Below are positions 40,837-58,619 of a DNA stretch of 64,000 nt, in pieces; within the stretch, counting starts at the first letter, position 1, and each line of letters starts with the position of its first letter. Below the pieces are notes generated by a model that saw only the letters and a list, made by a program, of their open reading frames with translations, had not been told where the DNA came from and searched no databases. The stretch spans positions 1 to 64,000 of the forward strand of contig CANMSA010000007.1 of NCBI GenBank assembly GCA_947500385.1. The letters are read 5' to 3'. The DNA comes from an uncultured Flavobacteriaceae bacterium (GTDB taxonomy: Bacteria > Bacteroidota > Bacteroidia > Flavobacteriales > Flavobacteriaceae). The position numbers were made by a program, and so were the translations under genes.

Positions 40837-43563
40837 ATGAAACAGAAGTATTTTGCACTGGTAGCGTTTTTTATGACCGCCATTGCTTTTTCGCAGGGTA
40901 CCATCACAGGATCGGTAACCGACGGTGAACTGGGAGGACCACTTCCAGGGGCCAGTATTATGGTCGAAGGAACTACCAATGGGGTTTCGACCGATTTTGA
41001 TGGTAATTTTACCATTGATGTAGTAGAAGAAAGCGGAGTTTTAGTGGTATCCTACATAGGTTTTACTACTAAAAAGGTACCGTATTCTTCTTATGGGAAT
41101 ATAGGGGCGATCAATCTTGACCCCGATGCCCAGGAACTAGAAGGTGTGATTGTAACAGGGGTACAAGATATCGCCAAGGATCGTAAAACGCCGGTAGCGG
41201 TTTCTACGATTAAAGCTGCTGAAATTCAATCAAAACTGGGGTCTCAGGAATTCCCTGAAATCCTCAATACCACTCCTTCTATCTATGCTACTAAAACAGG
41301 TGGTGGATTTGGAGACGCACGTATCAATATTCGTGGTTTTGACACGAATAATTCCGCAGTAATGATCAACGGTGTACCTGTGAACGATATGGAAAATGGT
41401 CGTGTTTTCTGGAGTAACTGGGCCGGGCTTGCAGATGTAACTTCTGCCATTCAGGTTCAAAGGGGTCTTGGATCATCCAAATTGGCAATTTCCTCTGTGG
41501 GAGGTACCATTAACGTCGTAACTAAAACCTCACAAAATGCCCAAGGAGGTGTTTTAGGAGCCACCGTAGGGAACGACGGGTATGTTAAAACGCTGGCATC
41601 GTACTCAACAGGATTGTTGGAAAACGGATTTTCCGCTTCACTTTTTTTAAGTAGAACCGGGGGGAACATGTATGCGGATGGAACCAACTTTGAAGGATAC
41701 AATTTTTTCTTAGGGCTTGGTTATACGACTGACAAGCATAGCTTGGAGTTCATGGTCACTGGAGCACCGCAATGGCACCATCAAAGAAGTTTTGCGCCCT
41801 CTATCGCCGATTACATCGAATATGGTGATGGTGATGGTGAACCCAACAGAAGGTACAATGGTGATTGGGGATTCCGTGACGGGGAAGAATTCAACTTTAG
41901 AAGAAACTTTTACCACAAGCCAGTGATTAGTTTAAACTGGGAATGGGAAGTTGGTGATAAGAGCACCTTGCAAACTTCTGCCTATGCGTCCTTTGGTCGT
42001 GGTGGTGGAACAGGAGAAATTGGTGAAATTGGAGGCCGGCGTCAGTTTGCTTTGCCAAGAGATGCCAACGGGCTTGTACGTGTAGATGATATCGTTGCTT
42101 TTAACAGCGGGCAAACCGTAGCGGACTTCAATAACGGAAATCCAAGGGAACAAATTGACGGTTTGTTCGTAAACAATAGCGATAGAAACCCGAACGAAGA
42201 AAATACCAACGGTATTTCTAGAAGAGCTTCAGTGAACTCCCATAACTGGTTTGGTTTGTTGGCAAACCTGAACAATCGTATCAGCGACAAACTTACGATT
42301 GATTTTGGGGTAGATTTAAGAAGATATAAAGGATTCCATTACCGAAGGGTTAATGACCGTTTGGGAGGGGATGTGTATCAGCAAACAGATGATGCGAACA
42401 ATCCTCTAGGTGAAGGTGCTTCGAATCTATTTTTTGAAACATACGATGCCAACCAGCCTTGGTGGGTATTTGGTAACATCGATGACGAAGAGAAAATCGA
42501 TTACTACAATATCGGTTATGTAAACTGGTTGGGCGTCTTTGGTCAGGTAGAGTATAACTTTACCGAAAATATTACCGGTTTCGTTCAAGGAGCCTTGTCG
42601 AATCAAGGATTCTCGCGTGAAGAGCTTTTTGGCGAAACACCTCCTGCACAGACCGACTATGAGAACATCCTAGGAGGGAACATCAAAGGGGGACTTAACT
42701 GGAACATTGATGAGCACCACAATCTGTTTGCCAATGGTGGTTTCTACTCAAAGCAGCCTTTGTTCGATGCAGTATTCTTAAACTTTAGTAATACGGTTAA
42801 CCCAAACCTTACGAATGAGAAAGTTGTAGGTGTTGAATTGGGTTATGGGTACCGAAGTGCTAAACTTAGGGCGAATGTGAACTTATACCGTACTAGTTGG
42901 AAAGACCGGTTCGAGTCTGTAGGTGCTACCTTTAACGCGGGTGAACCGGATGAAATTAGAGGAAACGCCAACCTTTTGGGCATTACGCAAGTACACTCAG
43001 GGCTTGAAATCGATGCACAATTCCGCGCAACGAATCAATTAAGATTTAACGGAATGATCTCCATCGGAAACTGGGAATACCAAGACAATGTAACGGCTAC
43101 CTTCTTTGATAACGATCAGGCACCGATTATTGTAGATGGGGTAGAGCAAACCGAAACCTTGGAGCTAGATGGGGTTAAAGTAGGTGATGCTGCTCAATTC
43201 ACGGCTTTTATAGGAGTAGATTATAGCATTATCGAAAACCTTAGTGTAGATTTAGGATATCGATATGCCGACAATCTGTATGCAGATTTTGATGCAACCG
43301 ATGTTGGCCCTGATGGCGCCTTGAAATTGCCTTCTTTTGGTTTGGCCGATGCCGGGATTGCCTATAGTTTGCCTTTTGGAGACAAGTTATTGAGTCTACG
43401 TCTAAATGTGAACAACTTGTTCGATACGACCTATATCGCAGAATCGGATACCAACCGTTTCGTAGAGGCAGGTGATGAAACCTATGATGGTATCAATGTA
43501 AGCAACCGGGTGTTTTTCGGATTCGGAAGAACTTGGAACGTAAGCGCTCGATTTAACTTCTAA
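40837..43563 (+). CDS. TonB-dependent receptor with carboxypeptidase-like regulatory domain
   Basis: 908 aa; ITGSVTDGELGGPLPGASIMVEGTTNGVSTDFDGNFTI, RINIRGFDTNNSAVMINGVPVNDMENGRVFWSNWAGL. Confidence 0.95.
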   Translation: MKQKYFALVAFFMTAIAFSQGTITGSVTDGELGGPLPGASIMVEGTTNGVSTDFDGNFTIDVVEESGVLVVSYIGFTTKKVPYSSYGNIGAINLDPDAQELEGVIVTGVQDIAKDRKTPVAVSTIKAAEIQSKLGSQEFPEILNTTPSIYATKTGGGFGDARINIRGFDTNNSAVMINGVPVNDMENGRVFWSNWAGLADVTSAIQVQRGLGSSKLAISSVGGTINVVTKTSQNAQGGVLGATVGNDGYVKTLASYSTGLLENGFSASLFLSRTGGNMYADGTNFEGYNFFLGLGYTTDKHSLEFMVTGAPQWHHQRSFAPSIADYIEYGDGDGEPNRRYNGDWGFRDGEEFNFRRNFYHKPVISLNWEWEVGDKSTLQTSAYASFGRGGGTGEIGEIGGRRQFALPRDANGLVRVDDIVAFNSGQTVADFNNGNPREQIDGLFVNNSDRNPNEENTNGISRRASVNSHNWFGLLANLNNRISDKLTIDFGVDLRRYKGFHYRRVNDRLGGDVYQQTDDANNPLGEGASNLFFETYDANQPWWVFGNIDDEEKIDYYNIGYVNWLGVFGQVEYNFTENITGFVQGALSNQGFSREELFGETPPAQTDYENILGGNIKGGLNWNIDEHHNLFANGGFYSKQPLFDAVFLNFSNTVNPNLTNEKVVGVELGYGYRSAKLRANVNLYRTSWKDRFESVGATFNAGEPDEIRGNANLLGITQVHSGLEIDAQFRATNQLRFNGMISIGNWEYQDNVTATFFDNDQAPIIVDGVEQTETLELDGVKVGDAAQFTAFIGVDYSIIENLSVDLGYRYADNLYADFDATDVGPDGALKLPSFGLADAGIAYSLPFGDKLLSLRLNVNNLFDTTYIAESDTNRFVEAGDETYDGINVSNRVFFGFGRTWNVSARFNF

Positions 43564-43654: not shown

Positions 43655-44095
43655 ATGTACGAGACTATTCAAACACTGCATTCCTATTTGGCCTATATTG
43701 TGTTGGCCTTGTTATTCTTAGCCGTTGCCAACGCTTTGATCGGCTGGATGGGCAATAAAATTTTCAACCTTTCCAAAGACTATCGACTAAGCCTATTTAC
43801 CTTGATTTTGTCCCATATTCAACTGGTGGTAGGGCTTATTTTGTTCTTTGTATCGGCCAACGGGTTCAAGGCGATACAAACCTTGGGTATGGGTGGTTTA
43901 AACGCACCTTCTCGATTATTGGCCGTTGAGCATCCGTTTATCAATATTGTTGCAATTGTGTTGATTACCATCGGTTGGTCGCGCCATAAAAAGTTTATGG
44001 AAGGAAAAAAGAAATTCAAAAGCATCGCGATTTTTTATGGGTTGGGCCTCTTGTGCATTCTGAGTCGCATTCCTTGGGGGCAGTGGTTCAATTAG
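43655..44095 (+). CDS. Small (146 aa) 4-TM membrane protein, cytochrome-b561-like topology
   Basis: MYETIQTLHSYLAYIVLALLFLAVANALIGW..., conserved His residues in TM regions. Confidence 0.7.
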   Translation: MYETIQTLHSYLAYIVLALLFLAVANALIGWMGNKIFNLSKDYRLSLFTLILSHIQLVVGLILFFVSANGFKAIQTLGMGGLNAPSRLLAVEHPFINIVAIVLITIGWSRHKKFMEGKKKFKSIAIFYGLGLLCILSRIPWGQWFN

Positions 44096-44802: not shown

Positions 44803-45891
44803 CTAGTACTTGGTTTCTAATTTTTGATATGGACCGGTTTTTTGTTTTGGTACTGCTTTTTTGATCAAGTAGAGATAAACAGGAAAATGATCACTATACC
44901 CGCCCGTATAGCTGCCGCCCGCATAGGTGCGAAACGGATACCCCTTGTACCTGCCTTTTTTGGTGATAAGATAAGGCGCATCGTACACCGCCGCTTTCCA
45001 GAATTTGTAGGTGCCCTCTTTCGGTTTGATAAGGCTGCTGGTAAGAAAGATTTGATCAAATAAATTCCACTGATCTCGGTAGGCCAACGAACCAATTCCT
45101 TTTCTAAAAAGCTGTTCCATGGGGTTGAACAAGTCTCCTTCTTCCAAACCTTCTTTTTTCCGCTTGGTCTGCAGTACTTTTTTAAGGCTATCATTGGTAG
45201 GGTCGTCATTTAAATCGCCCATACTAATGATTTTTGCCGTAGCATTGCGCCTTTGTATCGAATCGATGATACGTTTGTTTAACTCGGCCGCTGCCATACG
45301 ATTGGGCCTACTTCGCGCCTCACCGCCACTTCTAGAGGGCCAATGATTCACAATAAAGTATATTTCTTCATTGTCTAGCAAGCCACTAACCACCAATTGG
45401 TCTCGCGTATAGTTCCTTATTCCCGGTTCGTCGAACAACAACAGGCGATGGCTCGCCCAGGAAACGGGTAAAAACACCCCCTTTTTGTACAACAAGGCCA
45501 CATCGATTCCCCGTTCATCCGGAGAATCATAGTGAATAATACCATAGTCTTTTTGGGCGAGATTCGGATGGTGCACAAGATCTTCGATTACCTGTAAGTT
45601 CTCCACTTCGCAAATACCGATAACATCTGGTGAGCTTCCGGTAGCCATGCGTCCGATCTGAGAAAGTACCATTGAAATATTGGAAAGCTTTTGCTCATAC
45701 CGTGCTTGTGTCCATTGATCTTTTCCCTTTGGGGTACGGTCATCGTCAAAGGTGAGCGAATCATTTTCGATGTCGAAAAGGTTTTCAACATTGTAAAAGG
45801 CGACCGTACGAATTTTATAGAGGGTCTGTCCATGTACAAAGGAAGCCGAAAATAGTATTAGTAGGAAACAAAATAACGGAACTCTGATCAT
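44803..45891 (-). CDS. Exported endonuclease/exonuclease/phosphatase (EEP) family protein
   Basis: Signal peptide MIRVPLFCFLLILFSASFVHGQ; VAFYNVENLFD, DVIGICEVENLQV, SMGDLNDDPTND, YSDHFPVYLYL; start moved in from 45963. Confidence 0.9.
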   Translation of the reverse strand: MIRVPLFCFLLILFSASFVHGQTLYKIRTVAFYNVENLFDIENDSLTFDDDRTPKGKDQWTQARYEQKLSNISMVLSQIGRMATGSSPDVIGICEVENLQVIEDLVHHPNLAQKDYGIIHYDSPDERGIDVALLYKKGVFLPVSWASHRLLLFDEPGIRNYTRDQLVVSGLLDNEEIYFIVNHWPSRSGGEARSRPNRMAAAELNKRIIDSIQRRNATAKIISMGDLNDDPTNDSLKKVLQTKRKKEGLEEGDLFNPMEQLFRKGIGSLAYRDQWNLFDQIFLTSSLIKPKEGTYKFWKAAVYDAPYLITKKGRYKGYPFRTYAGGSYTGGYSDHFPVYLYLIKKAVPKQKTGPYQKLETKY

Positions 45892-45991
45892 ATGGGATTG
45901 GCTTTGATGTAATGATCTAGCAAGATAAATTTCTAGACTGCATGCATCCTGCAGTGGCGCCATTTATATTTGAATCGTTCAATATCAGAAA

Positions 45992-48721
45992 ATGCGTTCA
46001 CTTTTCACGATACTACTAATCATTTTAGGGTTGCCCAATATATTGGGGCAGCAGCGGTATTCGGTGAAAGGAAATGTACTTGACCAACATTCAAAGGAGC
46101 CTTTGTCCGGGGTCTCGATTACAATCGAAAGCACCGGTGCCTTCACAAAAACGGATGCATCCGGTGATTTTAAGATGAGTGACATGGAAAAAGGGCCGCA
46201 TATCGTTTCGCTCATAAAGAACGACTACATTACACAACGAATTCCCATTGAAATTGGGGAGGAAGAAGTTCATTTAGGGTATATTTTCTTAGAGAAAGAT
46301 ATCGTTACCGAACAAACGGACAATCTTATTTCCCTGACCGAGGCGGAACTTTTTGATGATGCCATCAATACCAATACTACCGGTCTCTTGCAAGCTACCC
46401 GCGATGTTTTTTTGAATACCGCCGCCTTTGATTTTGGTCAGGCCTTTTTTCGGGTCCGTGGATATGATTCCCAGCATGCCGTTGTTCTGATCAATGGGAT
46501 TCCCATGAACCAACTGGTAGATGGGCGCCCGCAGTGGAACCACTGGGGTGGGTTGAACGATGTAACACGCAACCAGCAGTTTTCAAGTGCACTGGGCACT
46601 TCAATTTATAGTTTTGGAGGAATTTTGGGTACTACCAATATAGATACACGGCCCTCAAAACTTCGAGCGGGCGCAAGGTTTTCATCTTCTGCATCCAATC
46701 GTACCTATGCAGGTAGGTTAATGGCCACCTATACTTCCAAACAGAACGATTCCGGGATTTCCTATAGCTTTTCAGGATCTCGCAGGTGGGCGAACCAAGG
46801 CTATATCGAAGGTACTTTGTATGATGCTTTTTCCTTCTTTATGGGGTTGGAATACAAGGTTAATACAAAGAATAGTCTTAACCTGACCGGCATCTTTGCT
46901 TCCAATAGAAGGGGAAGGTCCTCGGCGATTACACAAGAGGTGTACGAACTTGCAGGAAATCGGTACAATCCTTATTGGGGAGAACAAGAGGGCCAAATAC
47001 GCAATGCCAGAGAACGAACAATTGCCGAACCTATTCTATTGCTACATCATTTTTTCGAAGCGGAGCGATTTAGCCTCACTACCGCTGCCTCCTATCAGTT
47101 TGGAACCAGTACAAGAAGTCGGTTAGGTTACTACAATGCACCGAATCCAGATCCTACCTACTACCGATATCTACCCAGTTTTTATATCAATAGTCCCATT
47201 GGCGCGAATTTTGAAAGCGCCCGACAGACCGAGCAGGGTTTTTTGACCGACCCACAACTAAACTGGGAACGATTGTATCAAGCAAACGAACAGGGCCCCG
47301 CAAGTTATCTTTTGTACGACGATCGGGTCGATAACAAACAGTTGACCCTGAACACAGTAGGGAATTGGATGATCGGTACGCGTTTCCAAGCGACTGCCGG
47401 ACTAACCTACAAACAACTGGTTTCGGATAACTATGCACAGATAAACGACCTTTTGGGCGCTTCTTTTCATACGGATAGCGACCCGTTTTCAAATACGGCC
47501 AATGATTTGAAAAATACGGCTCCAAAAATGCAGAACGATGTTTTTAACTACCACTACCAAATGAATGTAGCAAACTATGAGGGGTTTGCACAGTTGGAAT
47601 ATCGTAGAAACAAATGGAGCGCCTTTCTAAGCGGCATGGGGTCTTCAAAAGAATACCAACGGGAAGGGTTTTTTCAAAATGAACGGTTCGCAGCGAACTC
47701 CTTGGGAAAAAGTGAGATCATCAAATTTACAAACCTTGGCATAAAGGGAGGGTTGGAGTACAAACTTACCGGAAGGCATTGGGTGTCGGGGAACGCGGCC
47801 CAGATCAATAGGGCCCCACTTGTTCAAAATAGTTTTGTAAATCCGCGGGAAGCAAACCTAATAGTTCCAAATTTACAAGAAGAGCGTATTTCAAGTGTTG
47901 ATCTTAATTACTATATACGGCTTCCTAAAGTTATAGGGCGCCTGAGCGCTTTCCATACCCGTTTTCAGAATAGTACCGATGTAAATTTCTTTTTTGTGGA
48001 TGCAGGTGTGGGGTCCGATTTTGTGCAGGAGGCACTTACGAATTTGGATAAGTTGCACATGGGAATCGAGATGGGTTTGGAATACAAACTGTCCTCCGCC
48101 GTAAAGTTAACGGCGGTAGCGGCGGTAGGTGAATATGTCTATGCAAGCAATCCCGAAGTTGCCATAAACTTTGATACCTCGGGAGACCCAGAAGACGTGA
48201 TCGATACCAAAGGGAAGGTAAACTTGGGAACAACGCAACTAAAAGGGTACAAGCTAGGGCAAGGACCGCAACAGGCTTTTGCCGTTGGCGTCGAATATCG
48301 GGACCCGCGCTACTGGTGGATCAAAGCGACCACCAACTATCTTGGGAACAACTATGCCAATGTTTCCGCAATTACGCGAACACAGAGCTTTTATTTAAAC
48401 CCGGATACCGGGCAGCCCTTTCCGGAAGCTACCCCAGAAAATGTACAGGCCCTTCTAAAACAGACGCCGCTAGACAAGATGTACCTTTTGAACTTGGTCG
48501 GAGGCAAATCATGGCTTAAAAAAGGAAAATACATCAGTGTGTTTGCAAGTATCAATAATGTGTTTGACACCGTGTTCCGAACCGGAGGGTATGAACAAAG
48601 TAGAAATGGCAATTTTGGACAACTGCGGCAAGATACCTTAAGCGGAATGCCCTCGTTTGCACCAAAATATTGGTACGGTTTCGGGCGAACCTTCTTTTTG
48701 AATGTCGCCTATAGTTTTTAA
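45992..48721 (+). CDS. TonB-dependent receptor
   Basis: 909 aa; KGNVLDQHSKEPLSGVSITIES, FFRVRGYDSQHAVVLINGIPMNQLVDGRPQWNHWGGLND; aromatic C-terminus (VAYSF). Confidence 0.94.
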   Translation: MRSLFTILLIILGLPNILGQQRYSVKGNVLDQHSKEPLSGVSITIESTGAFTKTDASGDFKMSDMEKGPHIVSLIKNDYITQRIPIEIGEEEVHLGYIFLEKDIVTEQTDNLISLTEAELFDDAINTNTTGLLQATRDVFLNTAAFDFGQAFFRVRGYDSQHAVVLINGIPMNQLVDGRPQWNHWGGLNDVTRNQQFSSALGTSIYSFGGILGTTNIDTRPSKLRAGARFSSSASNRTYAGRLMATYTSKQNDSGISYSFSGSRRWANQGYIEGTLYDAFSFFMGLEYKVNTKNSLNLTGIFASNRRGRSSAITQEVYELAGNRYNPYWGEQEGQIRNARERTIAEPILLLHHFFEAERFSLTTAASYQFGTSTRSRLGYYNAPNPDPTYYRYLPSFYINSPIGANFESARQTEQGFLTDPQLNWERLYQANEQGPASYLLYDDRVDNKQLTLNTVGNWMIGTRFQATAGLTYKQLVSDNYAQINDLLGASFHTDSDPFSNTANDLKNTAPKMQNDVFNYHYQMNVANYEGFAQLEYRRNKWSAFLSGMGSSKEYQREGFFQNERFAANSLGKSEIIKFTNLGIKGGLEYKLTGRHWVSGNAAQINRAPLVQNSFVNPREANLIVPNLQEERISSVDLNYYIRLPKVIGRLSAFHTRFQNSTDVNFFFVDAGVGSDFVQEALTNLDKLHMGIEMGLEYKLSSAVKLTAVAAVGEYVYASNPEVAINFDTSGDPEDVIDTKGKVNLGTTQLKGYKLGQGPQQAFAVGVEYRDPRYWWIKATTNYLGNNYANVSAITRTQSFYLNPDTGQPFPEATPENVQALLKQTPLDKMYLLNLVGGKSWLKKGKYISVFASINNVFDTVFRTGGYEQSRNGNFGQLRQDTLSGMPSFAPKYWYGFGRTFFLNVAYSF

Positions 48722-48883
48722 ATCGATAATAGCGATTTAGTGATGAAGGCCATCGGAGATGTTGATTTGACGTTTGCCAGACAAATGTACTGTTAAACCA
48801 AGGGCCAAAAAATTGCAGGTTTCTATTGAACGCCTTTTGGGCTGGTGCTAAGGTGGTTAACATAAAGTTGAAACACCCTAAAA

Positions 48884-50233
48884 ATGAGAAGAATTACATA
48901 TATACTCCTGGGAATACTAGTAATGGGCTGTGTGAAAGATCGCGATTTCGAGACGGCCACATTCAAGTGCTCCGATATTACGGTGAACGCAAGCTACCAA
49001 CAGCTAAGATCCTTGTACAAAGGGGAAACTATCCAAATTCAAGAAGATTGGACAATTGAAGGGTACGTAATCTCTTCCGATCAAACAGGGAACTTCTTCG
49101 GTGCGCTTTATTTTCAGGACAAGCCCTCGGAACCGACCGAAGGCTTCCAGATGGCCTTAGACCTTCGAGACATTCATCTGTTTTATCCGGTGGGGAGTAA
49201 AATAGCCATACGGTTAAAGGGCCTATATCTGGGAAAAACAAACGATGTTTTTAAAATAGGAGGTGTTTTTACCTCCTTCGGAAATACCACGGTGGGGAGG
49301 TTGCCCGCTACAGTGGTACCGAAGCATATTGCAATCCTGTGTGATGGAAAAACCATCATAACACCACAATTGGTCACACTCACCGAACTAACACCTAGTT
49401 TAACCAACACGTTAGTGCAAATACCCGCTGTTGAGATTGCCTTGGATGAAATAGGAGCGTCATTCGCGATTCCTGAAGAAGAAACAAAAAGGAGCTTAGT
49501 CGATTGCCTAGATAACGAACTCACGTTATTGAATAGTGGTTATTCGGATTTTCAAGAGGAGCCCCTTCCTTCAAAGAACGGTAGTGTTACCGGGATATTA
49601 CTACGAGAGAATACGCGCTATAGTATTGCAATTAGGAGTTTGGATGATATGGATTTTACCCAGGAACGTTGTGCTGAATTCGTAGATGAGTTTTCTTCGG
49701 ATCAGGTCTTTATTTCCGAATTGGCAGATCCCGATAACAATAGCAAAGCGCGCTTTGTAGAACTCTACAACGCAGCTTCAGAATCAATAAGCTTAAAAGG
49801 GTGGGTCCTTCGGCGTTACACAAACGCAAATACCGAAGTAAGTTCTACAGTAGATTTGTCAGAATTTGTAATTGAACCCAAAGCGACGCTGGTCATTTCC
49901 CCAAATAAGGCCGAATTTGAAGCAGTATATGGGTTTGCACCCGATCTTGAAGTAGGAACGAACAGTCCGGCCGATTCAAACGGTGATGATACACTTGAGT
50001 TGGTAGACCCCTTCGACACGGTCGTAGATATTTTTGGGGTGATAGGGGAAGACGGCTCCGGTACGGACCATGAATTTGAAGATGGGCGTGCGTTTCGGAA
50101 AAGCTCCGTCCTAAGAGGGAGTGCCGTCTACACCCCTGCGGAGTGGATTGTTTTCAACGATACGGGAGCGGCAGGCACCATTGATCAACCCCAAAATGCC
50201 CCGAACGATTTTACGCCCGGGACACGGGATTAA
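48884..50233 (+). CDS. Lipoprotein with DUF5689-like N-terminus and lamin tail domain (LTD)
   Basis: Lipobox LLGILVMGCVKD; VFISELADPDNNSKARFVELYNAASESISLKGWVLRRY...FVIEPKATLVISPNKAEFEAVYG. Confidence 0.82.
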   Translation: MRRITYILLGILVMGCVKDRDFETATFKCSDITVNASYQQLRSLYKGETIQIQEDWTIEGYVISSDQTGNFFGALYFQDKPSEPTEGFQMALDLRDIHLFYPVGSKIAIRLKGLYLGKTNDVFKIGGVFTSFGNTTVGRLPATVVPKHIAILCDGKTIITPQLVTLTELTPSLTNTLVQIPAVEIALDEIGASFAIPEEETKRSLVDCLDNELTLLNSGYSDFQEEPLPSKNGSVTGILLRENTRYSIAIRSLDDMDFTQERCAEFVDEFSSDQVFISELADPDNNSKARFVELYNAASESISLKGWVLRRYTNANTEVSSTVDLSEFVIEPKATLVISPNKAEFEAVYGFAPDLEVGTNSPADSNGDDTLELVDPFDTVVDIFGVIGEDGSGTDHEFEDGRAFRKSSVLRGSAVYTPAEWIVFNDTGAAGTIDQPQNAPNDFTPGTRD

Positions 50234-50239
50234 ACAAAT

Positions 50240-51664
50240 TTAACTGGCCCCATTGTCAACACGGGCTTCGATGACCGCTTCTACAGCATTAGGGATGTTT
50301 TCAAATAAATCATAACCAGTGAGATTTTCGATGGCATTGACCGATGTGGTAAAGGAACGCCAATCGGTACTAATATTTTGATCATTGGGAACATTAATGG
50401 CAATAACCCTTGTAGACGTGGTTACCCTGGAAATATCGTTCGATCCGTTTGGAAGTATCAATGCGACTTTCCAAAAAGAATCTGGCACGGTAATATTGCC
50501 ATTATCGATCGTGCTTGCAAAGCCGTTTCTTCCGGTACCACCACTCCCGGCAACTCCGGTTACGATATGTATTTCAAAACCTTGATCGGTAAGCTAGCGA
50601 AGGTAATTTTCAAAACTGGCCCAGGAACGTTGGTTATTATCGGGCGATTGTGGTGCAATATTGGTCATAAAATAGGTATTGGCGTTGTCTTCACTGCTAC
50701 CGTTCCTATCAGCGGAAGGGCACAAATGACCGCGATCAAAACCAGAGTTGGTATAGTCGCTACTAGTGGCTCTAAAAAATGAACTGGGCAAGGAAGTATC
50801 TTGTCTAAAACAATTGCAACGAGCGGTGTTTCCGGTCCATGCACTACTCAAATGCCAACTGGCCCAATTTGCGGTACCACGATTATTGTTGTAAGAAACG
50901 GTATAGTCATCTTTTGCCAAAAAATAGTTGGTAGCACTAGACCCGGCATTCGAAGGATTCCCAAAGGTGAGATTACTATCGCGGGCGGGGTTGGAGCCGC
51001 CGCCCGAGGTAGCGGTTGTAAATTCAACATTGTCGATATTCAATCGGTTACCACCACCACCGGTTTTATAGATTCCATACCGAGCTGCCCTGGTATCATT
51101 GATAGTGAAGGTTACCGTATTTAGCGCCGTAGAGGAGGTATTTACGGTGTTCCCGGCAAAAAGCCAAGAACCGCCATTGTCATAGGAGACGATCAATCGC
51201 CACTGTGAGCTGCCATCGCTCCCATATTTGGCATGGCGCACGCGAATAAGTTCAACGCCATTATCCATATTGAAGTTCATAATGGCGTAACCCGTATTGC
51301 GGATACGGGCCGAACGCGCACCAAATTTCCGGTCGTTGGAAAGTGACCCGATAAGGGCATCGTTCAGGAACCAACTTCCCGAAGAACTAAGGGTCACGTT
51401 CGCTCCGGCGTAACTGCCTTTGGTGGCAGATTCAAAACCTTCGGTAAAACCAGACGATCGTTCTGTGCCAAAAGTGTGTTTATGGGGCCCTTGATTGTCC
51501 TGAAAAAAGGTAGGAATGTCAAGTTCCCCCTGAATGGTCAAATAATTGTCTTGGGGTAATTCGCTTATTGCTTCGAAGGGAGTTTCATTTTCCGTTGAAC
51601 AACCAACCAAAAGAAATAAAAGCATACTGAATACTACAATAGGTTTTAAGATTACTAATTTCAT
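50240..51664 (-). pseudogene. Exported DNA/RNA non-specific endonuclease (NucA/DRGH family) interrupted by an in-frame amber codon at 50594-50596
   Basis: ORFs 50594..51664 and 50240..50488 are in the same frame; readthrough gives ...SWASFENYLR[TAG]LTDQGFEIHIVTGVAGSGGTGRNG...VPDSFWKVALILPNG; DRGHLCPSADRNGS active-site motif. Confidence 0.85.
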
Positions 51665-57905: not shown

Positions 57906-58619
57906 CTAAGTCAGGGGAACCACGGCCATACTGGCAATGTATAGGGTCACATTTGGAATCTGTAGCAAGGCCTGTGCGCATATTTCCATCGTAGCGCCCG
58001 TGGTAATTACATCATCTACCAAAAGTATATTTTTACCGTTCAGATTTTCAGTATTGCCCAAAATGTATAGGTCTTGCTTGCTTTGCCAACGACCAATTCT
58101 GCCTTTTTTGGTCTGTGTTTTAGTATTCGCTGTTTTGACCAACACATCGTTCCTAAAATCCGCGGCTAAATGAAAGGCCAATTTTTGTGCAAATACATCC
58201 ACCTGGTTGTACCCTCTTTTTTTTTGTTTTTTACGATGTAGGGGCACGGGTAGTACAAAATCGATTGCTTGTTTTAAGCCAGCATCTTCCTTTAGTAATT
58301 GTCCGTACAAATCTCCTAAAAACACCCCTACTTGCTCTTGATTTTTATATTTCAAATGGTGAATGAGATGTTGAACGATGCTATTTTCCCTGTAAAAAAG
58401 AAAGGAACTTGCTTTTTTAACAGCAATTCTACCATAAAATATACGGTCAACGGGGTTTTCTACGTTAAAGCAGTACTCGGTGAACGGCAGATCGTTTCGA
58501 CAAACGGTACACAGCTGTTGCTCACCTCTATATAAATGCGCATTACATCCAAAACAGACTGTTGGCAGTAACACCGTATTGATATCATTTAGTATCTTTG
58601 TGAGATTGGATAGTAACAA
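57906..58619 (-). CDS. ComF family phosphoribosyltransferase-like protein
   Basis: Zn-finger CFGCNAHLYRGEQQLCTVC; PRTase motif ILLVDDVITTGATM. Confidence 0.93.
   Translation of the reverse strand: MLLSNLTKILNDINTVLLPTVCFGCNAHLYRGEQQLCTVCRNDLPFTEYCFNVENPVDRIFYGRIAVKKASSFLFYRENSIVQHLIHHLKYKNQEQVGVFLGDLYGQLLKEDAGLKQAIDFVLPVPLHRKKQKKRGYNQVDVFAQKLAFHLAADFRNDVLVKTANTKTQTKKGRIGRWQSKQDLYILGNTENLNGKNILLVDDVITTGATMEICAQALLQIPNVTLYIASMAVVPLT

What the first reader, a model, noticed from the sequence alone, without database searches (positions are those of the whole stretch)
44803..51664. Candidate extracellular nucleic-acid (eDNA/phosphate) utilisation locus
Seen in sequence: an exported EEP-family hydrolase (44803-45891, minus) lies 100 bp from a divergent TonB-dependent receptor (45992-48721). 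This is followed by a lipoprotein with a lamin tail domain (48884-50233) in the place where a SusD-like partner would sit, then a convergent exported NucA/DRGH-type nuclease (50240-51664). Established knowledge: EEP proteins include DNases and phosphatases, NucA-type enzymes degrade DNA/RNA, and lamin-tail domains recur in bacterial surface proteins linked to nucleases. Inference: the four genes form a PUL-like system that cuts extracellular nucleic acid and imports products through the TonB receptor. This is the best candidate here for an under-described system.
Basis: partly seen in the sequence, partly recalled or inferred. Interest (0 to 1): 0.72.

Follow-up and report, generated by a model that had tools for sequence, protein, structure and literature searches.

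The report
Bacteroidota outer-membrane DNA-uptake gene triad
The locus is not best read as a feeding system for loose DNA: two of its genes are counterparts of genes that the duck bacterium Riemerella must have to take up and keep foreign DNA, and together with a neighbouring nuclease gene they form a widely conserved set that probably pulls DNA through the outer membrane with a TonB-type receptor instead of a pilus.

Summary
In detail: EEP hydrolase, divergent TonB-dependent receptor (TBDR), DUF5689+lamin-tail lipoprotein and convergent DRGH nuclease are present, but the nuclease frame has an in-frame TAG. The interpretation changes. TBDR and DUF5689 protein are orthologues of RA0C_RS04915/RS04920 of Riemerella anatipestifer, whose markerless deletions abolish natural transformation (PMC8459023); that locus was identified by gene order and exact published comEC primers. 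EEP(divergent)-TBDR-DUF5689 is a conserved triad: 87 of 99 loci in Flavobacteriaceae, Weeksellaceae and allied families, reaching other orders. DUF5689 is predicted confidently as a tandem OB fold; its nearest solved folds are mostly DNA-binding (HIN-200, telomere) proteins. The lipobox is invariant with a surface-export-like signal; the receptor models as an ordinary TBDR. ComEC and ComM are missing only from TBDR-negative genomes (6 of 10; 0 of 25 positives), partly confounded by genome reduction but clean in one 3.6-Mb genome that lost triad, ComEC, ComM and ComF. The DRGH nuclease is accessory, though in one distant family it joins the operon. Best reading: TonB-driven, pilus-independent DNA import for transformation; nutrition is a weaker rival. 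The pair was known in 2021; the EEP partner, fold, TonB link and wider range are additions.

The parts
44803..45891 (-). Exported EEP-family hydrolase (PF19580), 362 aa; third conserved member; likely periplasmic nuclease acting on incoming DNA (role inferred). Orthologue by position of RA0C_RS04910.
   Evidence: Pfam 413 bits; catalytic N, E, NH, DxN and DH residues invariant in 22 aligned EEPs; divergent next to the TBDR, with DUF5689 downstream, in 87 of 99 loci
45965..45972 (+). Bacteroidota-type promoter -7 element TATATTTG upstream of the TBDR
   Evidence: read from sequence; TAnnTTTG occurs upstream of 59 of 100 TBDR orthologues against 9.4% of random windows
45992..48721 (+). TonB-dependent receptor, 909 aa, orthologue of RA0C_RS04915 (essential for natural transformation in R. 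anatipestifer)
   Evidence: 33% identity over the full length, against 22% for the paralogue; groups with it in a tree; AF2 pLDDT 83.6, Foldseek hits FhuA, Fiu, PqqU
48884..50233 (+). Lipoprotein, DUF5689 + lamin-tail domain, 449 aa, orthologue of RA0C_RS04920; predicted surface DNA-binding partner of the receptor
   Evidence: lipobox Cys invariant 54/54, usually followed by an acidic LES-like motif (PMC5080379)
48986..49648 (+). DUF5689 domain: predicted tandem OB fold (nucleic-acid binding)
   Evidence: pLDDT about 96; Foldseek top hits HIN-200 (IFI16, p204), Teb1, LEF-3, telomere-end binding protein
49697..50041 (+). Lamin-tail domain; clade-specific C-terminal module (others carry DUF5017/choice-of-anchor J)
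   Evidence: 19 of 54 relatives have LTD, 25 of 54 DUF5017; not confidently folded
50240..51664 (-). Lipoprotein DRGH nuclease (PF01223), accessory; interrupted by an in-frame TAG at 50594-50596
   Evidence: same position with an intact copy only in L040 among the Flavobacteriaceae loci fetched; codons after the stop still conserved
57906..58619 (-). ComF family protein (cytoplasmic competence factor), context only
   Evidence: TIGR00201 90.8 bits, below its curated cut-off of 233.55

Best explanation
EEP, TBDR and the DUF5689-LTD lipoprotein are the outer-membrane stage of the Bacteroidota natural-transformation machinery. The surface lipoprotein binds extracellular DNA through its tandem OB fold and presents it to the TonB-dependent receptor. 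The receptor lets DNA through the outer membrane with energy from TonB. The exported EEP enzyme trims or cuts the DNA. ComEC, DprA, ComF, ComM and RecA then bring a strand inside and recombine it. Shown elsewhere: both deletions in R. anatipestifer abolish transformation, and a tonBA mutant transforms less without an iron defect. Shown here: orthology, conserved linkage, folds (predicted), export signals, partial co-loss with competence genes. Inferred: DNA binding, TonB-driven passage of DNA, the role of EEP, and that the window's organism is competent.
For: Genetics: deletion of RA0C_RS04915 or RS04920 gives no transformants (PMC8459023); tonBA and tonBB mutants transform less, and tonBA without an iron defect (PMC8383284). 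Identity of the R. anatipestifer locus: recA...comEC...EEP|TBDR-DUF5689 in exactly the published locus-tag spacing, and both published comEC primers match exactly. Orthology: best hits and tree. Conservation: TBDR in about 92 of 101 family genomes, nearly all from different genera, and in 118 of 119 Weeksellaceae with one match each; triad in 87 of 99 loci, EEP upstream in 61 of 79 named loci, triad in other orders. Median TBDR-DUF5689 gap 20 bp. Tandem OB fold. Export signal. Own genome has ComEC, DprA, ComM and ComF. Co-loss: ComEC and ComM absent in 6 of 10 TBDR-negative and 0 of 25 TBDR-positive genomes, P = 1.3e-4; G027 (3.6 Mb, RadC kept) lost triad, ComF, ComEC and ComM while most of its neighbourhood remains.
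Against: No experiment shows DNA binding or DNA passage by any of the three proteins. A TBDR channel with its plug is narrow for dsDNA. EEP was not tested in Riemerella, and 16 of 79 named loci (mostly Flavobacterium) lack it at this position. Most TBDR-negative, com-negative genomes are small, and RadC, a control gene, is also missing or broken in several. G029, G044, G079 and G271 lack the TBDR but keep ComEC and DprA. Other families of the order lack the receptor but have DprA. F. johnsoniae was not transformable in the laboratory (PMC7965970). The Riemerella lipoprotein matches the family named after M949_1556, a gene reported as associated with LPS synthesis, antigenicity and virulence (cited in PMC4976936), so an indirect envelope effect is possible.
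Confidence: 0.66

Rival explanations
1. Extracellular nucleic-acid utilisation: surface nucleases cut DNA and the receptor imports fragments for phosphate, carbon or nitrogen.
For: Three nucleic-acid-linked proteins side by side; in family f24 a five-gene operon of DUF5689 lipoprotein, DRGH nuclease, EEP, TBDR and DUF5689; lamin-tail and EEP modules resemble ExeM-type nucleases. Phosphate affects transformation frequency in Riemerella (PMC8383284).
Against: No SusD, nucleosidase, nucleotidase, phosphatase or PUL regulator recognised nearby; near-universal rather than patchy; the orthologous pair is required for transformation; the DRGH nuclease is absent from almost all relatives and interrupted here.
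Confidence: 0.14
2. TonB importer of some other compound (nucleotide, cofactor, metal complex) whose loss shuts down competence indirectly.
For: Canonical TBDR fold whose closest solved structures are siderophore, PQQ and vitamin B12 importers; iron, phosphate and peptone all affect transformation in Riemerella.
Against: The deletions abolish transformation completely whereas nutrient limitation only lowers it; OB-fold partner; nuclease-family neighbour; loss together with ComEC, ComM and ComF in G027.
Confidence: 0.12
3. Envelope/LPS-related pair: loss alters the cell surface and so blocks DNA access.
For: R. anatipestifer RS04920 belongs to the M949_1556 lipoprotein family (599 bits, cut-off 475); M949_1556 is reported as associated with LPS, antigenicity and virulence.
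Against: Does not explain the conserved EEP, the TonB receptor, the OB fold, or co-loss with com genes; the original paper could not be read here.
Confidence: 0.08

Closest known systems
Riemerella anatipestifer RA0C_RS04915-RS04920 natural-transformation pair (PMC8459023)
   Same: Orthologous receptor and DUF5689 lipoprotein, adjacent and co-directional, with a divergent EEP gene upstream (RS04910 by position)
   Different: Lipoprotein ends in a lamin-tail domain instead of DUF5017/choice-of-anchor J; comEC not adjacent (ComF lies about 8 kb downstream instead); an extra DRGH nuclease gene; EEP not considered in the paper
SusC/SusD polysaccharide utilisation loci
   Same: TBDR with carboxypeptidase-like N-terminal domain followed by an outer-membrane lipoprotein
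   Different: Receptor gave no SusC/RagA (TIGR04056) match at E <= 0.1, no SusD, no polysaccharide enzymes or regulator; partner is an OB-fold protein
ExeM/NucH extracellular nucleases (NF033680, NF033681)
   Same: Lamin-tail module and EEP nuclease domain both occur in that family
   Different: Here on separate proteins, far below the family cut-offs (33 and 49 bits against 300 and 1300)
EndA / NucM DNA-entry nucleases (DRGH family; PMC6384898)
   Same: Cell-associated nucleases of the same DRGH family needed for DNA uptake in pneumococcus and Moraxella
   Different: The window copy is interrupted and the gene is not a constant neighbour; no uptake function shown
Type IV pilus / ComEA DNA uptake
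   Same: Feeds the same ComEC-DprA-RecA pathway
   Different: No pilus gene in the triad; transport step proposed to be TonB-driven

Membership tests
Riemerella-type transformation pair | TBDR orthologous to RA0C_RS04915 | tested here: met
   33% identity over 950 columns, 506 bits against 110 for the paralogue; tree groups them
Riemerella-type transformation pair | Adjacent DUF5689 lipoprotein orthologous to RA0C_RS04920 | tested here: met
   31% identity over the DUF5689 part; PF18942 214 bits
Riemerella-type transformation pair | ComEC, DprA, ComM, ComF in the same genome | tested here: met
   G000 C23:61530, C2:62249, C6:41876, window 57906
Riemerella-type transformation pair | HhH protein (RS02645) and DUF1343 protein (RS09020) in the genome | not tested
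Riemerella-type transformation pair | Deletion abolishes transformation | not testable with these tools
   needs the organism
SusCD polysaccharide utilisation locus | SusD-like lipoprotein beside the receptor | tested here: not met
   partner is DUF5689 + LTD, no SusD family hit
SusCD polysaccharide utilisation locus | Receptor of the SusC/RagA subfamily | tested here: not met
   no TIGR04056 match at E <= 0.1 for this receptor, while the paralogue at 40837 gives 112 bits, itself below the 368-bit cut-off
ExeM/NucH nuclease | Score over the NCBIfam cut-off | tested here: not met
   33 bits against 300; 49 against 1300
DRGH DNA-entry nuclease | Complete PF01223 domain | tested here: not met
   domain split by the in-frame TAG: profile positions 12-128 before it and 134-222 after it

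The most novel reading that the evidence does not exclude
Bacteroidia import transforming DNA across the outer membrane without a pilus, through a TonB-energised receptor, fed by a surface lipoprotein with a tandem OB fold like those of animal DNA sensors, with an EEP nuclease as a dedicated third component; in some lineages a DRGH entry nuclease joins the operon.
Probability: 0.42. Interest if true: 0.86.

Novelty: new variant of a known kind. Interest (0 to 1): 0.64.

Why it matters
How Gram-negative bacteria without an obvious DNA-uptake pilus pull DNA through the outer membrane is open, and Bacteroidota are a main reservoir of resistance genes. The receptor-lipoprotein pair is known in Riemerella only as a genetic requirement. 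The analysis gives it a testable mechanism: a predicted DNA-binding fold, an energy source, a nuclease partner, and a conserved distribution from Flavobacteriaceae to other orders of the class. It also predicts that many flavobacteria thought non-transformable carry the outer-membrane apparatus.

Tried and rejected
PUL reading: no SusD, no catabolic genes. The DRGH nuclease as a core member: found at this place in only one other flavobacterial genus among the loci fetched; kept as accessory because of the f24 operon. Sequence search of PDB for EEP and TBDR found nothing, and for DUF5689 only EcoRV hits at E about 0.5, treated as chance; the fold search replaced them. G058 was first counted as TBDR-negative; its locus shows a divergent triad, so it was moved to the positives. 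RadC used as a control gene weakened the co-loss test for small genomes. ComF as a co-loss marker through its zinc-ribbon profile (PF18912) was too insensitive (it missed 5 of the 25 receptor-positive genomes) and is used only for G027, where synteny shows it. The C-terminal lamin-tail domain could not be modelled (pLDDT below 50), so nothing is claimed for it. Mirror-tree correlation TBDR-EEP (r 0.91; 0.83 after removing PGI) is not used as evidence because the pairs are not independent and PGI is a poor species clock. The genome-contig scan did not return Riemerella by name, so the species was identified by primers and gene order.

Full report
What is there. The window is a contig piece of a 6.0-Mb genome whose genes look flavobacterial. 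The EEP protein matches PF19580 end to end (E 7e-124). The receptor has a carboxypeptidase-regulatory N-terminal domain and only a borderline Plug hit. The lipoprotein is mainly DUF5689 (PF18942, 214 bits), with a lamin-tail domain behind it. The convergent nuclease is PF01223. One correction: the nuclease frame 50240-51664 contains an in-frame TAG at codon 357 (50594-50596). The 117 aligned codons after the stop are 86% identical in amino acid to the intact relative in L040, with 52 synonymous against 16 non-synonymous differences, so the stop is recent, tolerated by read-through, or an assembly error.

The lead that changes the reading. A full-text search for DUF5689 returned one paper: a transposon screen in Riemerella anatipestifer in which RA0C_RS04915 (outer-membrane protein with carboxypeptidase-regulatory domain) and RA0C_RS04920 (DUF5689 + DUF5017) were found essential for natural transformation, each by markerless deletion, below detection (PMC8459023). 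Its authors suggested that the pair binds and transports DNA across the outer membrane. A companion paper reports that tonBA and tonBB mutants transform less, and that the tonBA mutant has no iron defect (PMC8383284); in the passages read its authors explain this by nutrient transport and do not connect it to the receptor.

Orthology was tested, not assumed. Genome G312 holds recA, dinB, sdhB, sdhA, sdhC, comEC, a 145-aa gene, a carboxylase, EEP, TBDR, DUF5689 in a row (names other than EEP, TBDR, DUF5689 and comEC read from the sequences by eye, comEC by Pfam). This is the spacing required by the published tags RS04870 (recA), RS04895 (comEC), RS04915 and RS04920, and both published comEC primers match that comEC exactly. 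The Riemerella receptor hits the window receptor at 33% over its full length (506 bits), against 110 bits for the paralogous receptor at 40837-43563. DUF5689 and EEP hit their counterparts at 31% and 42%. In a small tree all triad receptors including Riemerella's fall together, apart from the paralogues. By order, RS04910 is the EEP gene. The paper mentions it only as an upstream gene whose expression did not change.

Distribution. A receptor match was found in 97 of 101 genomes of the window's family, about 92 of them full orthologues, nearly all from different genera. It was found in 118 of 119 Weeksellaceae-type genomes, one match each. In 99 neighbourhoods fetched, 87 have EEP divergent upstream and DUF5689 directly downstream, with a median receptor-DUF5689 gap of 20 bp (layouts). 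Named loci (Chryseobacterium, Kaistella, Epilithonimonas, Elizabethkingia, Algoriella, Flavobacterium, Kordia and others) show DUF5689 downstream in 78 of 79 and EEP upstream in 61 of 79; the 16 loci with another gene upstream are mostly Flavobacterium. A phylum sample found further orthologues in families f17, f18 and f24 of the same class, and most of those loci keep the triad. The paper had reported the receptor only from Flavobacteriaceae in the broad sense. In f24 (L226, L227) the genes run DUF5689-large lipoprotein, PF01223 nuclease, EEP, TBDR, DUF5689 on one strand (the large lipoprotein matches DUF5689 in L227 only). A TAnnTTTG promoter element lies upstream of the receptor in 59 of 100 loci against 9.4% of random windows; the window has TATATTTG at 45965-45972.

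Structure. AlphaFold2 gives DUF5689 (residues about 30-262) a pLDDT near 96. Foldseek against the PDB returns, at the top, HIN-200 domains of IFI16/p204/p202 (tandem OB folds that bind DNA), Teb1, LEF-3 and telomere-end binding proteins, with LysRS OB domains lower down. TM-scores are low (0.3-0.4 on the target), probably because the two OB domains are arranged differently, so the claim is 'tandem OB fold', not 'HIN-200 homologue'. The lipobox cysteine is invariant in 54 of 54 relatives and is typically followed by CVQDDDF/Y. That resembles the Bacteroidota lipoprotein export signals SDDFE, SDDDD and QKDDE (PMC5080379), so surface exposure is predicted. The receptor model (pLDDT 83.6, pTM 0.78) matches FhuA, Fiu, PqqU and BtuB, so it is an ordinary TonB-dependent transporter. 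My count of about 22 strands comes from the DSSP string by eye. EEP has all catalytic residues invariant in 22 sequences and a signal peptide but no lipobox, which suggests the periplasm (inference).

Co-loss. Among 35 genomes of the Flavobacteriaceae- and Weeksellaceae-type families and two allied ones, all 25 that hold the receptor have ComEC, DprA and ComM. Of 10 without it, six lack ComEC and ComM (Fisher P 1.3e-4); five of those also lack DprA and the sixth has only part of it. Caution: four of the six are small genomes in which the control gene RadC is also missing or broken. Without them and the two receptor-positive genomes that lack RadC, P is 0.037. The positives were chosen by hand and the genomes are not phylogenetically independent. 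The cleanest case is G027, 3.6 Mb with RadC intact: its locus (L217) keeps PGI, the paralogous receptor, the 146-aa gene, Ig542 and GlyRS, but EEP, TBDR, DUF5689 and ComF are gone from it, and ComEC and ComM are absent from the genome. In G029 the EEP remains beside a 61-aa receptor remnant while ComEC and DprA remain. Outside these families, receptor-negative lineages of the order mostly have DprA, so competence there, if any, must use another outer-membrane route.

Mechanism. I propose that the surface OB-fold lipoprotein captures DNA, the receptor passes it with TonB energy, the exported EEP trims or nicks it, and ComEC takes a strand inward. The requirement for the pair and for TonB is published in Riemerella. 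Orthology, linkage, folds and signals are computed here. DNA binding, passage through the receptor and the EEP role are inferred. DRGH nucleases are known entry nucleases in pneumococcus (EndA) and Moraxella (NucM; PMC6384898), which makes the recurrent nuclease neighbour fit the transformation reading as well as the nutrition one. A complication: the Riemerella lipoprotein matches the family named after M949_1556, a gene reported as associated with LPS, antigenicity and virulence, so an indirect envelope effect is possible.

Novelty. The pair and its requirement for transformation are known (2021), and a 2025 review of transformation does not mention Riemerella or TonB. What this adds is the EEP partner, the tandem OB fold, the TonB connection, the lamin-tail variant, the spread beyond Flavobacteriales with the nuclease operon, and the co-loss pattern. 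Only open-licence papers were searched, so later work in subscription journals may exist.

Noticed in passing
window 50594-50596 (-): In-frame TAG in the DRGH nuclease gene, with the downstream 117 codons still conserved against the intact relative in L040; recent nonsense mutation, read-through or assembly error.
   Followed up: partly
window 40837-43563 (+) and 43655-44095 (+): A paralogous TonB receptor and a 146-aa membrane protein sit beside the triad in most Flavobacteriaceae loci fetched (PGI - TBDR2 - 146 aa - EEP); function unknown.
   Followed up: no
L066:5675-6643, L058, L077 and others: Many genomes carry a second EEP gene (about 44% identical) just downstream of DUF5689, next to what looks by sequence like an HflX GTPase gene.
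   Followed up: no
L088 (G094), L092 (G019); G224 C19, G275 C53: The receptor gene is found in two pieces in several genomes, suggesting repeated loss of the uptake receptor.
   Followed up: no
L164-L166, L170-L174, L176, L178-L180, L191, L195: In 14 named loci (mostly Flavobacterium) a short ORF of about 200-215 aa follows the receptor, before a larger lipoprotein gene (checked in L165), i.e. one module of the lipoprotein seems to be a separate gene.
   Followed up: partly
L226, L227 (family f24): Five-gene operon: large lipoprotein (DUF5689 in L227), PF01223 nuclease lipoprotein, EEP, TBDR, DUF5689.
   Followed up: partly
G000:C6:1958-2467: A second, weak DUF5689 match in a 1715-aa frame of the same genome; similar very long DUF5689 proteins are common in family f6, in which the receptor was not found.
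   Followed up: no
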